DNA from: Pseudanabaena sp. BC1403
GTDB taxonomy: Bacteria; Cyanobacteriota; Cyanobacteriia; Pseudanabaenales; Pseudanabaenaceae
DNA: 38,725 nt
NCBI RefSeq assembly: GCF_002914585.1
Contig: NZ_PDDM01000036.1
Coordinates: 1-38,725 of the forward strand
Direction: 5' to 3'
The notes beneath the pieces are model-generated. The model ran no database searches, was not told where the DNA came from, and saw nothing but the letters and a program-made list of their open reading frames with translations. Both the position numbers and the translations under genes were made by a program. Below are positions 15,714-21,423 of this stretch, piece after piece. Position 1 is the stretch's first letter. Each line of letters starts with the position of its first letter.

Positions 15714-16619
15714 ATGTCTAACTTACCGCATCCAGTTCAATATCAGGGTAGCAAGAGAAATCTCGCTTCATTTATTCTTGGCTTTTTTCCTGACAAGATA
15801 GATAGACTGGTTGAACCTTTCGCGGGGACTGGAGCAATTAGTATCGCAGCATCGGCTAAACAATACGCACAAAGATTTTGGTTAAATGATCTTAATCAGC
15901 CCCTAATAGAATTACTCCAGTTGATTATTGATGATCCGCGTGAGATCGCTAATACTTACGCAGATATATGGAATGAGCAGCATAGTGATTCAATAGGTCA
16001 CTATTTTGAAATTAGAACAAGATTTAATCAAACTAACGATCCAAAATTGTTTTTATATTTACTAGCTAGATGCGTAAAAGGTTCTGTACGTTATAACTCT
16101 GAAGGTCTATTTAATCAGAGTCCAGACAAGAGACGCAAAGGGACAATTCCTGCAACGATGAGTAAAAATATTACGGGGGTTTCTAGCCTATTAAAAGGTA
16201 AATGTCAGTTTACGGCTTGGGATTATCGTAAAGTATTAGCGGCAGTCCAGAAAACTGATCTGGTTTATCTCGATCCGCCTTATCAGGGTGTATGTGGAAA
16301 TAGGGATTCAAGATATTTATCGGGTATTGATTTTGATAATTTTGTTCTCGCTCTTGAGAGTCTCAATGATCGGGGCATTAGGTTTGTAATTAGTTATGAC
16401 GGCAAGTTAGGGAATAAGGCTTTTGGTCAGATTTTACCTGAGAGATTGGCTCTTAAAAGAATTGAAATTGAAGTTGGGAGATCGTCGCAGTCAACTTTAT
16501 TAGGTAGAGAAGAAAAAACCATTGAGTCTTTGTATTTATCACCAAATCTGATAAAGGATAAGTTGATCGATTTGGCTAGCTATAGGTATGAACAGCCAAG
16601 ACAATTGACGTTGGTGTGA
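15714..16619 (+). CDS. DNA adenine methyltransferase, D12/Dam class (alpha order)
   Basis: This transfers a methyl group from S-adenosylmethionine to adenine N6 in a specific DNA site. The 301-residue protein has, in order, motif X (QYQGSKR, 9-15), motif I (EPFAGTGA, 34-41), a target-recognition region (~95-165) and the catalytic motif IV DPPY (187-190). That is the alpha arrangement of the Dam/M.DpnII family. The downstream HNH gene begins three bases after its stop, so the pair looks like a type II restriction-modification operon and this enzyme would protect the host. The recognition site cannot be read from the sequence. GATC is the commonest for the class. Confidence 0.92.
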   Translation: MSNLPHPVQYQGSKRNLASFILGFFPDKIDRLVEPFAGTGAISIAASAKQYAQRFWLNDLNQPLIELLQLIIDDPREIANTYADIWNEQHSDSIGHYFEIRTRFNQTNDPKLFLYLLARCVKGSVRYNSEGLFNQSPDKRRKGTIPATMSKNITGVSSLLKGKCQFTAWDYRKVLAAVQKTDLVYLDPPYQGVCGNRDSRYLSGIDFDNFVLALESLNDRGIRFVISYDGKLGNKAFGQILPERLALKRIEIEVGRSSQSTLLGREEKTIESLYLSPNLIKDKLIDLASYRYEQPRQLTLV

Positions 16620-16622
16620 AAA

Positions 16623-17354
16623 ATGGATAGCTCTCAGCCATTACCCGATGATTTTTTGCAGATTTGTCGATCTGTGACTGCCAAAAGACCGAAAGCGGTA
16701 ATTGACCATATTCTCCAATATGGTTTTATTACAACTGAGGATCTGAAAGGAACCTATGGTTATAATCATCCGCCGAGAGCCGCTAGGGATGTGCGCGAAC
16801 ATGGTATTCCCTTAGAAACTTTTCGGGTGGTCGGAAGTGATGGTAGAAAGATTGCTGCCTATAGGTTTGGAGATATTAGCAAGACAAGATTTTCGAGGTT
16901 GTCTGGTCGGACGGGGTTATCAAAGCAGATTAAGGATGAGTTGATTAAGAGTTATGGTTGTCGATGTTTTATTTATCTAGAGCAAGTGGATGAGCGCGAG
17001 CTGCAAATCGATCATCGTGTTCCTTTTGAGGTTGATGGTGAACCAGATTTAGCACCTGAAAACTTTATGCTTTTATGTGGTTCTGCGAATCGAGCAAAGT
17101 CTTGGGCTTGTGAGCATTGCCAAAATTGGATTGAGCTTAAGGATAAGTCTATTTGTTTGTCATGTTACTGGGCATATCCAGAAAATCATGTACATATTGC
17201 AATGCTACAGGTGAGGCGCATAGATCTGTTGTGGGAGGAGGATGAGGTGGCGGTGTATGAGGCTTTGAAGCAAAGGGCGATGAGTTTAGATAAGGCAATC
17301 CCTGAGTTTGTTAAGGAAATTATCGAACAGGAAATTAGTCGTGATGAAGATTAG
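16623..17354 (+). CDS. HNH endonuclease, probable type II restriction enzyme
   Basis: The 243-residue protein has three parts. An N-terminal winged-helix-like DNA-binding region (~20-85) reads YGFITTEDLKGTYGYNHPPR and then a DVREHGIPLETFRV wing. An HNH core follows (Asp130-His131, Asn147, Asn156, Lys159, with Cys113, Cys115 and Cys152). A C-terminal zinc-ribbon-like segment has Cys163-x2-Cys166 and Cys178-x2-Cys181. It starts three bases after the methylase stop with no clear ribosome binding site of its own, so translational coupling is likely. That order, methylase first, fits a need to protect DNA before nuclease appears. Assignment as a restriction enzyme rests on context plus domains. 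Confidence 0.82.
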   Translation: MDSSQPLPDDFLQICRSVTAKRPKAVIDHILQYGFITTEDLKGTYGYNHPPRAARDVREHGIPLETFRVVGSDGRKIAAYRFGDISKTRFSRLSGRTGLSKQIKDELIKSYGCRCFIYLEQVDERELQIDHRVPFEVDGEPDLAPENFMLLCGSANRAKSWACEHCQNWIELKDKSICLSCYWAYPENHVHIAMLQVRRIDLLWEEDEVAVYEALKQRAMSLDKAIPEFVKEIIEQEISRDED

Positions 17355-18361: not shown

Positions 18362-18378
18362 TCATAACTTTGAATTTT

Positions 18379-18470
18379 GCTGAATAGCGATCGCTGTTTA
18401 GTGATTTGAATGATGGGACGATCGCATTATTTTTACTTTTGGAGAATAGGCGATCATGGAGTGATCGCTG
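18379..18470. repeat. HIP1-containing 63-base repeat, locus 1
   Basis: Two degenerate units begin at 18379 and 18441, each of the form GNNGAATAGGCGATCGCT...GATTTGAAT...GCGATCGCATTATTTTT. The same unit recurs at loci 2 and 3 within 2.5 kb. Confidence 0.7.
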
Positions 18471-19923: not shown

Positions 19924-20042
19924 CGTTCTACAATTTGGAATTGGCGATTGAGTAGGTTCATGCTCGCTGAAATTGTGAGACTAATGGCGAGATATGTTCC
20001 CATGATAATCAACTTGGTGGTTTGAATAAGACTTATTTTAAT

Positions 20043-20163
20043 TTTTGGTGAATAGGCGATCGCTATTTGGTGGTTTGAATAAGAGGGCGATCGCATTATT
20101 TTTGCTTTTGGTGCATAGGCGATCGCTGTTTGGTGGTTTGAATTAGGGGGCGATCGCATTTGA
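20043..20163. repeat. HIP1-containing 63-base repeat, locus 2
   Basis: Two close copies start with GGTGAATAGGCGATCGCT (20047) and GGTGCATAGGCGATCGCT (20110), 63 bases apart. Each continues with TTTGGTGGTTTGAAT and GGGCGATCGCATT. They fill the gap between the cryptochrome start and the protease-module genes. Confidence 0.85.
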
Positions 20164-20209
20164 TCGAGTAAGCTAGAAGCACAAGATCTCAGATTATGGA
20201 GACACTAAC

Positions 20210-20425
20210 ATGACATTAGCCGAAGTAATTCCAGCAGCACGACGACTTACTGCGATCGAAAAGCTCAAACTAATTCGTGTTCTTGTAGAAGACTTAGATA
20301 TTGCTGAAGATATTGCGCCAATTGAACCATTTAAAACCTATGACCTGCCGACTCCTTACGATATGTTTGGTGCTGGTGCAATTTTAATGGAAGCTCTCAA
20401 ACAAACAGACACAACTCATCAATAA
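20210..20425 (+). CDS. Small helical partner protein of a retropepsin-like module
   Basis: This 71-residue protein has an amphipathic N-terminal helix (TLAEVIPAARRLTAIEKLKL then IRVLVEDLD), a short proline-containing linker and a C-terminal block YDMFGAGAILMEALKQ. The N-terminus resembles many small antitoxin-like or regulatory proteins of cyanobacteria. The stop is three bases before the ATG of the protease-like gene, so the two are almost certainly co-translated. I know of no defined function. A role as an antitoxin or chaperone for the partner is inference from size and gene order. Confidence 0.75.
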   Translation: MTLAEVIPAARRLTAIEKLKLIRVLVEDLDIAEDIAPIEPFKTYDLPTPYDMFGAGAILMEALKQTDTTHQ

Positions 20426-20428
20426 CTT

Positions 20429-20833
20429 ATGAGATTCAAGTACTCCACCAGTAGCCCAAATCAAAACGAATTTGATAGCCTTCCAAGAATTCCACTGACA
20501 TTTCAGCAAGGCGAGCACATAGTTGAGACAGTTGGCTTAGTCGATAGTGGCGCTACGATTAACGTCTTGCCCTATGAAATTGGATTGCAATTAGGTGGTG
20601 GTTGGAATGACCGCAAGGCTATCATTCGATTAACAGGTAATCTTGGTAATCAGCAAGCAATACCATTTTCTGTAATCTCTCAGATTGGAGGATTTGAACC
20701 AATCAAATTAGTGTTTGCTTGGACAAATAACCCAAATGCTCCATTAATTCTTGGTCAAACCAATTTTTTTCTTGAATTTGATGTTTGTTTCTACCGTTCC
20801 AAGTCAGAGTTTGAAATTAATCCAAAATCGTAA
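20429..20833 (+). CDS. Retropepsin-like aspartic protease, clan AA (134 aa)
   Basis: The single-domain fold shows the catalytic triad Asp-Ser-Gly in GLVDSGATINVLPYEIGLQL (about residues 35-54). The second conserved hydrophobic-Gly element is PLILGQTNFFLEFDV (about 109-123). These are the two elements of retroviral-type aspartic proteases, which act as homodimers. There is no signal peptide, so it would act in the cytoplasm. It follows the small helical gene by three bases. Bacterial members of this type are common in cyanobacterial genomes but uncharacterised as a pair. Substrates are unknown. Confidence 0.8.
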   Translation: MRFKYSTSSPNQNEFDSLPRIPLTFQQGEHIVETVGLVDSGATINVLPYEIGLQLGGGWNDRKAIIRLTGNLGNQQAIPFSVISQIGGFEPIKLVFAWTNNPNAPLILGQTNFFLEFDVCFYRSKSEFEINPKS

Positions 20834-20835
20834 AT

Positions 20836-20967
20836 CTGGCGATCGCATTGTTTTATTTTTGATGAATAGGCGATCGCTGTTTGGAGATTTGAATAAGGGG
20901 GCGATCGCATTATTTTTGCTTTTGGTGCATAGGCGATCGCATTGTTTTGTTTCTTGTGAATAGGCGA
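20836..20967. repeat. HIP1-containing repeat, locus 3
   Basis: Units GATGAATAGGCGATCGCT (20861) and GGTGCATAGGCGATCGC (20924) are 63 bases apart. A half-unit TGTGAATAGGCGAT follows at 20955. The block fills the gap between the protease gene and the decayed brnT. Confidence 0.8.
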
Positions 20968-21003
20968 TAATAAAACGAGTTAGTTTAATCAGTCACAACC
21001 TTC

Positions 21004-21081
21004 ATGCAATTTGAGTGAGACGAAACAAAAAATATTGAAAACATTCGTAAATGTGAGATTGAGGTTGCAGATATTCCCGCA
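21004..21081 (+). pseudogene. Relic of a BrnT toxin gene, in frame with brnA
   Basis: Translating from ATG 21004 gives MQFE, a TGA stop at 21016, then DETKNIENIRKCEIEVADIP. BrnT RNase toxins open with FEWDExKNxxNIxKHxI, so the stop replaces the conserved Trp (TGG to TGA) and Cys replaces the His. Only about 26 codons of the usual ~90 remain, and they run in frame into the BrnA open frame, indicating an internal deletion. The toxin cannot be functional. Confidence 0.7.
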
Positions 21082-21423
21082 ATGAACAAAAAACAACATA
21101 ATCCGAATTCATTTCCGCAAGAAGAGCTACCCATCATGAACAGAGAAAATTTGAACAGTACCTCTCGAACTGACTTAGCAGCATTGGTGGCAATGTCAGA
21201 TAAGGATATTGATTATTCAGATATTCCTCCACTAACAGATGAATTTTTTGAACGTGCAACTTTATGCATTCCCGTAGATCAAACTCACAACTTAGTTCAA
21301 CTAGATCCAGATGTACAGCAATGGTTTCAGGATCAAGGAGATCAGTATAAAACTTTGATTAACAGTGTTTTACGCCAATATATTGAGGAAAAGGCTAATG
21401 CTGACCGACCCAAACCGCTATAA
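21082..21423 (+). CDS. brnA: Orphan BrnA-type antitoxin
   Basis: BrnA antitoxins neutralise the BrnT ribonuclease and repress their own operon. The family pattern is clear: TDLAALVAMSDKDIDYSDIP then PLTDEFFERA, followed by a ribbon-helix-helix dimerisation segment LDPDVQQWFQDQGDQYKTLI (74-93) and a final helix. The frame opens at ATG 21082 (113 residues). ATG 21136, with AAGAAG upstream, gives 95 residues and matches the usual BrnA start better. The partner toxin is reduced to a relic directly upstream, so this is a solitary antitoxin, perhaps retained as a repressor or against a second BrnT. Confidence 0.82.
   Translation: MNKKQHNPNSFPQEELPIMNRENLNSTSRTDLAALVAMSDKDIDYSDIPPLTDEFFERATLCIPVDQTHNLVQLDPDVQQWFQDQGDQYKTLINSVLRQYIEEKANADRPKPL

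What the first reader, a model, noticed from the sequence alone, without database searches (positions are those of the whole stretch)
20210..20833. Two-gene module: small helical protein plus retropepsin-like protease
The genes are three bases apart, both small and soluble, and set among repeats and a toxin-antitoxin relic. The protease has the DSGA active site and the ILGxxxF element of a dimeric aspartic protease. A protease controlled by a co-translated helical partner would be a toxin-antitoxin-like or regulated-proteolysis system that I believe has not been described.
Basis: partly seen in the sequence, partly recalled or inferred. Interest (0 to 1): 0.62.

Follow-up and report, generated by a model that had tools for sequence, protein, structure and literature searches.

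The report
Cyanobacterial protease with its paired regulator
Two neighbouring genes in a cyanobacterium, for a small helical protein and an enzyme related to HIV protease, are kept together as a pair in many cyanobacteria and a few other bacteria and decay as an antidote and a poison would; the pair is already listed as an untested candidate anti-virus system.

Summary
In detail: two co-directional genes 3 bases apart, 20210-20425 (71 aa, helical in models) and 20429-20833 (134 aa, retropepsin-like, DSGA and ILG motifs; predicted fold closest to Rickettsia APRc). The pairing is not chance: in a 386-genome cyanobacterial survey 91 of 93 open close-family proteases have an intact partner directly upstream, and the other 2 also lack their N-terminus. 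Pairs also occur in assemblies of Planctomycetes and Armatimonadota and on 3 cyanobacterial plasmids. The catalytic Asp is kept in 142 of 142 distinct pairs. Decay is one-sided: 14 surveyed pairs have a broken protease beside an intact partner, 0 the reverse; 20 intact partners stand alone. One natural chimera joins the partner's N-terminus to a VapB-type tail before a VapC-like toxin. This favours a toxin-antitoxin-like module with the protease as effector. It is not undescribed: PADLOC-DB lists the pair as candidate anti-phage system PDC-M52; I found no paper describing its mechanism. A separate retropepsin family has another small partner, DUF5678, adjacent or fused, which keeps an adaptor reading alive. 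Toxicity, binding, protease activity and anti-phage function are untested.

The parts
20210..20425 (+). Partner gene (PDC-M52A-like), 71 aa: N-terminal helical hairpin plus tail with a conserved (S/T)PY...A..L pattern
   Evidence: ORF; recurs directly upstream of the protease; the window partner matches PDC-M52A only weakly (E 0.033), relatives clearly (46 of 53 partner-bearing members of A3); helices in the models
20426..20428 (+). 3-base gap between stop and start; the two ORFs are in one frame
   Evidence: in 142 distinct intact pairs the commonest spacing, with start codons chosen by script, is an 8-base overlap (59), then gaps of 5 (21) and 3 (12)
20429..20833 (+). Retropepsin-like aspartic protease gene (PDC-M52B), 134 aa
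   Evidence: ORF; PDC-M52B E 1.5e-40; retropepsin fold
20543..20554 (+). Active-site motif D39-S-G-A
   Evidence: read; Asp and Gly of this motif kept in 142 of 142 distinct intact pairs
20747..20767 (+). ILGQTNF element (residues 107-113)
   Evidence: read; its L, G, N and F are invariant across the 14 diverse proteases
20037..20126 (+). Upstream copy of a 90-nt repeat (rich in GCGATCGC, the HIP1 motif; name recalled)
   Evidence: genus relatives share about 20090-20884
20851..20940 (+). Downstream copy of the same repeat, 93% identical
21082..21423 (+). Neighbour, not part of the module: BrnA antitoxin without an intact BrnT
   Evidence: PF14384 E 9.2e-09; short upstream scrap

Best explanation
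The pair is a toxin-antitoxin-like effector module, the catalogued candidate PDC-M52. The downstream gene makes a cytosolic dimeric retropepsin-like protease that cleaves one or more cell proteins when free. The upstream gene, translated just before it, makes a short-lived helical protein whose N-terminal hairpin is an antitoxin-type module and whose conserved (S/T)PY...A..L tail binds the protease and blocks its active site or its dimerisation. Loss of the partner, for example during phage takeover or stress, would release the protease and arrest the cell. Shown: the pair, its conservation, catalytic residues, fold prediction, one-sided decay, the chimera with a VapB-type antitoxin, the catalogue entry. 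Inferred: dimerisation, inhibition, toxicity, lability, trigger, anti-phage role.
For: Fixed coupling: 91 of 93 open close-family proteases in the 386-genome survey have an intact partner upstream; 3 of 3 full-length close ones in a Planctomycetes-phylum survey and 3 of 3 in an Armatimonadetes-phylum survey; 3 of 3 plasmid records. Catalytic Asp 142 of 142. One-sided decay: survey 14 broken-protease/intact-partner pairs against 0 the other way, plus 20 intact lone partners against 2 proteases without partner; if lesions fall by gene length the chance is 0.0026 for 14 of 14 and 4e-5 for 34 of 36; without two cases broken only by one early nonsense codon it is 0.006 for 12 of 12. Chimera L136: partner residues 1-47 (60% identical) joined to a VapB-type tail (NF050009 E 2.3e-06, below its curated cut-off), overlapping a PIN toxin (PF01850 E 4.1e-11). 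Up to 5 matches per genome and a patchy spread, 69 of 386 genomes. PDC-M52 match. A type II restriction-modification pair lies about 3 kb upstream.
Against: No experiment shows toxicity or binding. The tail that should bind the protease has low confidence in the window model (pLDDT 53-59 over residues 31-70), and the tool gives no inter-domain error. No DNA-binding domain was recognised in the partner. No phage record matched (0 of 50,697), and only 3 of 72,556 plasmid records did. In a separate retropepsin family the partner (DUF5678) can be fused to the protease, which fits an adaptor as well as an inhibitor. The decay test is not corrected for shared ancestry; in the genome contigs set 1 of 11 one-sided cases goes the other way (L016), and one partner counted intact (L038) runs past its usual stop; both are low-coverage assemblies. 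A full-length match to the VapB chimera was found in 1 of 386 genomes.
Confidence: 0.5

Rival explanations
1. Regulated proteolysis: the partner is an adaptor or activator that brings a specific substrate to the protease or helps it dimerise. The pair processes one cell protein, as RimB trims RpsF, and is not a toxin.
For: In another retropepsin family the small partner DUF5678 is fused to the protease in a cyanobacterium (L219) and in Planctomycetes-phylum genomes (L305, L310), and encoded next to it elsewhere (L264, where DUF5678 scores below its cut-off, and L302; L304). Known bacterial retropepsins with a function, RimB and RloA, have specific roles in operons (PMC11957791, PMC12239564; passages seen). 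Purifying selection on both genes.
Against: If the partner were needed for activity, its loss would leave an inert protease and decay should hit either gene first; observed 14 to 0 in the survey. Patchy distribution, several copies per genome and many ruined copies do not look like a housekeeping processor.
Confidence: 0.27
2. Dedicated phage sensor-effector: the partner senses infection and the protease attacks a phage or host protein only then, without being an addiction module.
For: PADLOC candidate PDC-M52; PDCs are described as candidates found by guilt-by-embedding, mostly unvalidated (PMC12988326, passages seen); restriction-modification genes about 3 kb away.
Against: No phage challenge data. 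The nearest neighbours are a photolyase, the BrnA gene and a magnesium-chelatase-like gene, not a dense defence island (9 neighbouring ORFs scanned).
Confidence: 0.13
3. The partner is a dedicated substrate or trans-acting propeptide: the protease cleaves the partner's tail, and the freed N-terminal hairpin acts as a regulator.
For: The tail carries a conserved hydrophobic (S/T)PY pattern and has low model confidence in the window protein; partner and protease diverge together (distance-matrix correlation 0.90).
Against: Correlated divergence is expected from joint inheritance. No cleavage evidence. Intact lone partners (20 in the survey) would have no local cleaver.
Confidence: 0.1

Closest known systems
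PDC-M52 (PADLOC-DB candidate anti-phage system, genes M52A and M52B)
   Same: Same two genes in the same order; window protease matches M52B at E 1.5e-40; 55 members of A3 match M52B (the list given has 55 protease-bearing rows) and 46 match M52A (53 partner-bearing rows).
   Different: A catalogue entry only: no mechanism or test found. The window's own partner matches M52A weakly (E 0.033). Retropepsin nature, one-sided decay and VapB chimera come from this work. Nine A3 members also match PDC-M08B weakly (best E 0.00044; not followed up).
APRc, retropepsin-like protease of Rickettsia conorii (PDB 5c9f)
   Same: Closest solved fold: TM 0.77 on the target, 17% identity for the window model; Z 13.5 over 126 residues for the L139 model.
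   Different: Numbering of the solved chain (107-234) suggests part of a longer protein; no upstream partner known to me (recalled).
RimB and RloA bacterial retropepsins
   Same: Bacterial retropepsin-like proteases with a DTG site; RloA is dimeric by crystal and SEC-MALS (PMC12239564); RimB sits in an operon and stimulates RimK (PMC11957791) (passages seen).
   Different: RloA has a signal peptide; the operon partners are RimK and a phosphodiesterase (rim) or an inactive transglutaminase and an ATP-grasp protein (rlo), not a 70-aa helical protein.
AAA-ATPase/subtilisin-like protease TA modules (mycoplasma TA132/3; IetS of Agrobacterium)
   Same: A protease acts as the toxin of a two-gene TA system, neutralised by its neighbour (PMC8562856, passages seen).
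   Different: Serine protease of 757 aa and an AAA-ATPase antitoxin of 353 aa in the mycoplasma; no resemblance to the proteins here.
VapBC type II toxin-antitoxin of cyanobacteria
   Same: One natural chimera (L136) uses the partner's N-terminal module as the front half of a VapB-type antitoxin before a PIN toxin.
   Different: The window pair has no PIN toxin and no VapB tail.
DUF5678-retropepsin modules
   Same: Small upstream partner next to, or fused with, a retropepsin-like protease.
   Different: No PF18929 match in the window partner or the partner relatives scanned; the cyanobacterial proteases of that family are 25-29% identical to the window's.

Membership tests
PDC-M52 (PADLOC candidate) | M52B protease profile | tested here: met
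   E 1.5e-40 for the window protease
PDC-M52 (PADLOC candidate) | M52A partner profile | tested here: inconclusive
   Window partner E 0.033 over residues 1-26; own-genome paralogue 5e-9; 46 of 53 partner-bearing members of A3 match at E 0.01
PDC-M52 (PADLOC candidate) | The two genes adjacent and in order A-B | tested here: met
   PADLOC's own system rules were not seen
PDC-M52 (PADLOC candidate) | Protection against phage | not testable with these tools
   needs a phage challenge
Retropepsin-like aspartic protease (clan AA) | D-[ST]-G active-site motif | tested here: met
   DSGA in the window; Asp and Gly 142 of 142, middle residue T or S in 141 of 142
Retropepsin-like aspartic protease (clan AA) | Retropepsin fold | tested here: met
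   predicted models; sequence alone is below the Pfam cut-offs
Retropepsin-like aspartic protease (clan AA) | Works as a homodimer and cleaves peptides | not testable with these tools
Type II toxin-antitoxin system | Short co-directional gene pair, small partner first, tight spacing or overlap | tested here: met
Type II toxin-antitoxin system | Antitoxin cannot be lost while the toxin is active | tested here: inconclusive
   decay 14 to 0 in the survey, 10 to 1 in genome contigs; indirect, not corrected for ancestry
Type II toxin-antitoxin system | Toxin is toxic and the antitoxin binds and neutralises it | not testable with these tools
   AlphaFold2 of the read-through fusion gives no confident docking; needs expression tests
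Type II toxin-antitoxin system | Antitoxin or complex binds its own promoter | not tested
   no known DNA-binding family recognised
PF09720 Unstab_antitox / PF10047 DUF2281 antitoxins | Profile score above the curated cut-off | tested here: not met
   window partner no hit; only weak hits for L136 and L236 (E 0.0099-0.11)
DUF5678-retropepsin module | Partner carries DUF5678 | tested here: not met
   no PF18929 hit for the window partner or the partner relatives scanned

The most novel reading that the evidence does not exclude
Bacteria have a class of toxin-antitoxin or abortive-infection systems whose effector is a retropepsin, a relative of HIV protease, held in check by a small co-translated partner. 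Two unrelated partner types (M52A and DUF5678) have been recruited to the same kind of protease, and the M52A front half is exchangeable with antitoxins of RNase toxins.
Probability: 0.35. Interest if true: 0.75.

Novelty: new variant of a known kind. Interest (0 to 1): 0.52.

Why it matters
If the protease is a checked effector, it would add an aspartic protease to the known toxin activities and give cytosolic bacterial retropepsins a common purpose. It would turn an untested catalogue entry (PDC-M52) into a defined hypothesis with simple genetic tests, and it points to a second, parallel DUF5678-retropepsin arrangement in other bacteria.

Tried and rejected
Rejected: chance neighbours (the pair recurs at tight spacing). 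A phage gene: no match in 50,697 phage records at E 0.01 and no significant PHROG (best E 0.078). A retroelement relic is not excluded by search: the flanks were not searched for reverse transcriptase. The protease being common without its partner: only a separate family of about 205 aa, 25-29% identical, lacks it (9 places in the survey); the one member examined carries DUF5678 fused in front. Weak NCBIfam hits (allantoate amidohydrolase for the protease, MPN385 for the BrnA ORF) and other stray Pfam hits were taken as chance.

Led nowhere: sequence search against solved structures (one unconvincing hit each); structure of the complex (tail or loop of low confidence, no inter-domain error given, coordinates not available); alignment A2 appeared to misalign the partner rows and was replaced by A3; DUF5678 in the window's own genome (no match, and its controls were silent too, so no proof of absence); literature searches for retropepsin or aspartic/aspartyl protease with toxin-antitoxin and cyanobacteria gave nothing on this pair in what was listed. 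The library holds open-licence papers only and no bioRxiv preprints, so the 2024 preprint that introduced the PDC candidates (reference 15 of PMC12988326) was not seen. PDC-M52 was a term: none of the 40 listed of 339 papers shows an occurrence, and a paper with it would also hold 'PDC-M' and so rank ahead of the one-term papers. A partner search of plasmids gave 5 records, some without the protease hit; those were not followed up.

Caveats on counts: both profile models were built from the fetched loci themselves. 'Intact' means one open frame covering most of the profile with a start codon nearby; one search used slightly different start rules. Of 191 survey rows 27 were dropped as duplicates by identity of an 81-base stretch, which can also merge different genomes (L229 was merged with L123), and 1 of 83 genome contigs rows. 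The two sets share some genomes (for example L064 and L100). Two of the 14 one-sided cases (L107, L110) are broken only by one early nonsense codon; without them 12 of 12, chance 0.006. One of the 20 lone partners (L137) lies near a contig end; without it 33 of 35, chance 6e-5. A lone partner may have a protease too decayed to see; several have stubs (L123, L238, L245, L250). The 9 distant-family places are not counted as close-family proteases.

Full report
What is there. The organism is a cyanobacterium close to Pseudanabaena: the nearest named relatives of the protease, 85% identical, are in Pseudanabaena and Oscillatoriales assemblies. The same genome holds a second, diverged pair (partner 38%, protease 47% identical) elsewhere. 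Both window genes are under purifying selection against genus relatives (dN/dS 0.05-0.29).

The protease. Pfam matches are below threshold, but the AlphaFold2 model (protease part about pLDDT 90) matches Rickettsia APRc best, followed by pepsins, retroviral proteases and Ddi1. A diverged relative from another genome (L139) gives APRc Z 13.5 over 126 residues. In 142 distinct intact pairs the catalytic Asp and the Gly of the motif are invariant.

The partner. It is a helical hairpin followed by a loop and a third helix in both models; in the window model the second half has low confidence. Across subfamilies the C-terminal half keeps a (S/T)PY....A...L pattern with different surroundings (KTYDLPTPYD in the window type, SYPVWSPYDAF in another). 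No Pfam or NCBIfam family claims it.

Is the pair real? In the survey of 386 cyanobacterial genomes (further loci fetched; profiles; census; 191 rows, 164 after removing duplicates) there are 91 intact pairs, 14 pairs with a broken protease and intact partner, 0 with an intact protease and broken partner, 4 with both broken, 20 intact partners without protease, 10 partner fragments, 14 protease fragments, 2 open proteases without partner (L090, L183) and 9 members of a distant family. L090 and L183 lack the first 6 and 13 profile positions as well as the partner. In the 75 loci from genome contigs (83 rows, 82 after removing one duplicate) there are 51 intact pairs, 10 broken-protease pairs, 1 pair with broken partner (L016), 2 with both broken, 12 protease fragments, 3 lone intact partners and 3 partner fragments; one of the 51 (L038) has a partner that runs past its usual stop. 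L016 and L038 are low-coverage assemblies (titles). Outside cyanobacteria, 5 of 294 genomes of the Planctomycetes phylum gave hits; the three full-length close ones have the partner, the other two are distant or marginal. In the phylum of an Armatimonadetes assembly 5 of 251 gave hits; the three full-length close ones have the partner, one genome has fragments and one a distant protease. These two surveys were centred on genomes already known to have the protease, and many are draft assemblies. All three plasmid records with the protease carry the partner, which public annotation calls 'hypothetical protein'. No phage record matched.

How decay speaks. If lesions fell in proportion to gene length (134 against 71 codons), 14 of 14 in the protease has probability 0.0026; counting lone partners and lone proteases, 34 of 36 gives 4e-5; leaving out two cases broken only by one early nonsense codon, 12 of 12 gives 0.006. 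The lesions sit at many different places, so many are independent, but the test is not corrected for ancestry. Several lone partners keep a stub of the protease behind them. An active protease without its partner seems not to be tolerated, while the partner alone is. That is the expected mark of a toxin and antitoxin; an adaptor or activator would not predict it.

A natural chimera. In a genome of the same genus, L136 joins the partner's N-terminal 47 residues (60% identical) to a VapB-type tail, overlapping by 4 bases with a PIN-domain VapC-like gene. The other VapB-tail proteins listed carry different N-terminal parts, mostly of Phd/YefM type by eye (recalled). A full-length match to the chimera was found in this genome only, of 386. 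It suggests that the partner's front half can serve as an antitoxin front half and that its own tail is the part specific to the protease.

Against an easy answer. The distant retropepsin family found has DUF5678 fused in front in the one cyanobacterial member examined. In two loci from the Planctomycetes- and Armatimonadetes-phylum surveys DUF5678 is the adjacent upstream gene, in one of them with a score below the family's cut-off. Of 8 DUF5678 places in 119 Planctomycetes-phylum genomes, 6 have a retropepsin-like match fused or following, three of these only weakly (E 0.0008-0.004). Some bacterial retropepsins thus travel with a different small upstream partner, and fusion is as natural for an adaptor as for an inhibitor.

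What is known. PADLOC-DB 2.0.0 contains this pair as PDC-M52A/PDC-M52B (window protease E 1.5e-40, window partner only E 0.033, paralogue partner 5e-9; 46 members of A3 match M52A, 55 match M52B, and 9 match PDC-M08B weakly). PDCs are candidates from a guilt-by-embedding screen, most without experimental validation (PMC12988326, passages seen). No paper listed holds 'PDC-M52'. A survey of TA systems in Synechocystis 6803 has no word beginning 'aspart' in its main text (PMC4963859, passages seen). Protease toxins have a precedent in the AAA-ATPase/subtilisin modules (PMC8562856, passages seen). Bacterial retropepsins with known roles are RimB and RloA (PMC11957791, PMC12239564, passages seen).

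Local setting. The module is bracketed by 90-nt repeats. Comparing 9 kb around it, three genus relatives (L007, L008, L009) are similar over the module and its repeats but not beyond (L008 has no left flank to compare); in two others (L080, L083) similarity extends to BrnA. About 3 kb upstream lies a type II restriction-modification pair.

Verdict. A real, conserved, catalogued but mechanistically undescribed two-gene module. The evidence leans to a checked protease effector of toxin-antitoxin type, at about even odds; binding, toxicity and purpose remain to be tested.

Noticed in passing
window 15714-17354: Type II restriction-modification pair: methyltransferase (MTase_II E 7.7e-73) and restriction enzyme (REase_II E 4.8e-56), after an ATP synthase-like gene.
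   Followed up: partly
window 20960-21423: BrnA antitoxin kept while only a short scrap that may be its BrnT toxin remains upstream.
   Followed up: partly
window 18369-18455, 20037-20189, 20851-20940: Copies of a 90-nt repeat rich in GCGATCGC; three strong matches in this window and only weaker ones among those scored elsewhere in the genome (40 of 344 candidates scored).
   Followed up: partly
L219, L264, L302, L304-L307, L309, L310: DUF5678 next to or fused with retropepsin-like proteases, some matches weak: a parallel partner-protease arrangement in other bacteria.
   Followed up: partly
L136 992-1644 (-): Natural chimera: M52A-type N-terminus with a VapB-type tail, overlapping a PIN-domain VapC-like gene.
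   Followed up: yes
L236 1527 onward (+): A lone partner gene is followed by genes that read as HicA and HicB (identification by eye, recalled).
   Followed up: no
L308 1039-1647 (-): DUF5678 fused to what reads as a response-regulator receiver domain (by eye), with no protease match.
   Followed up: no
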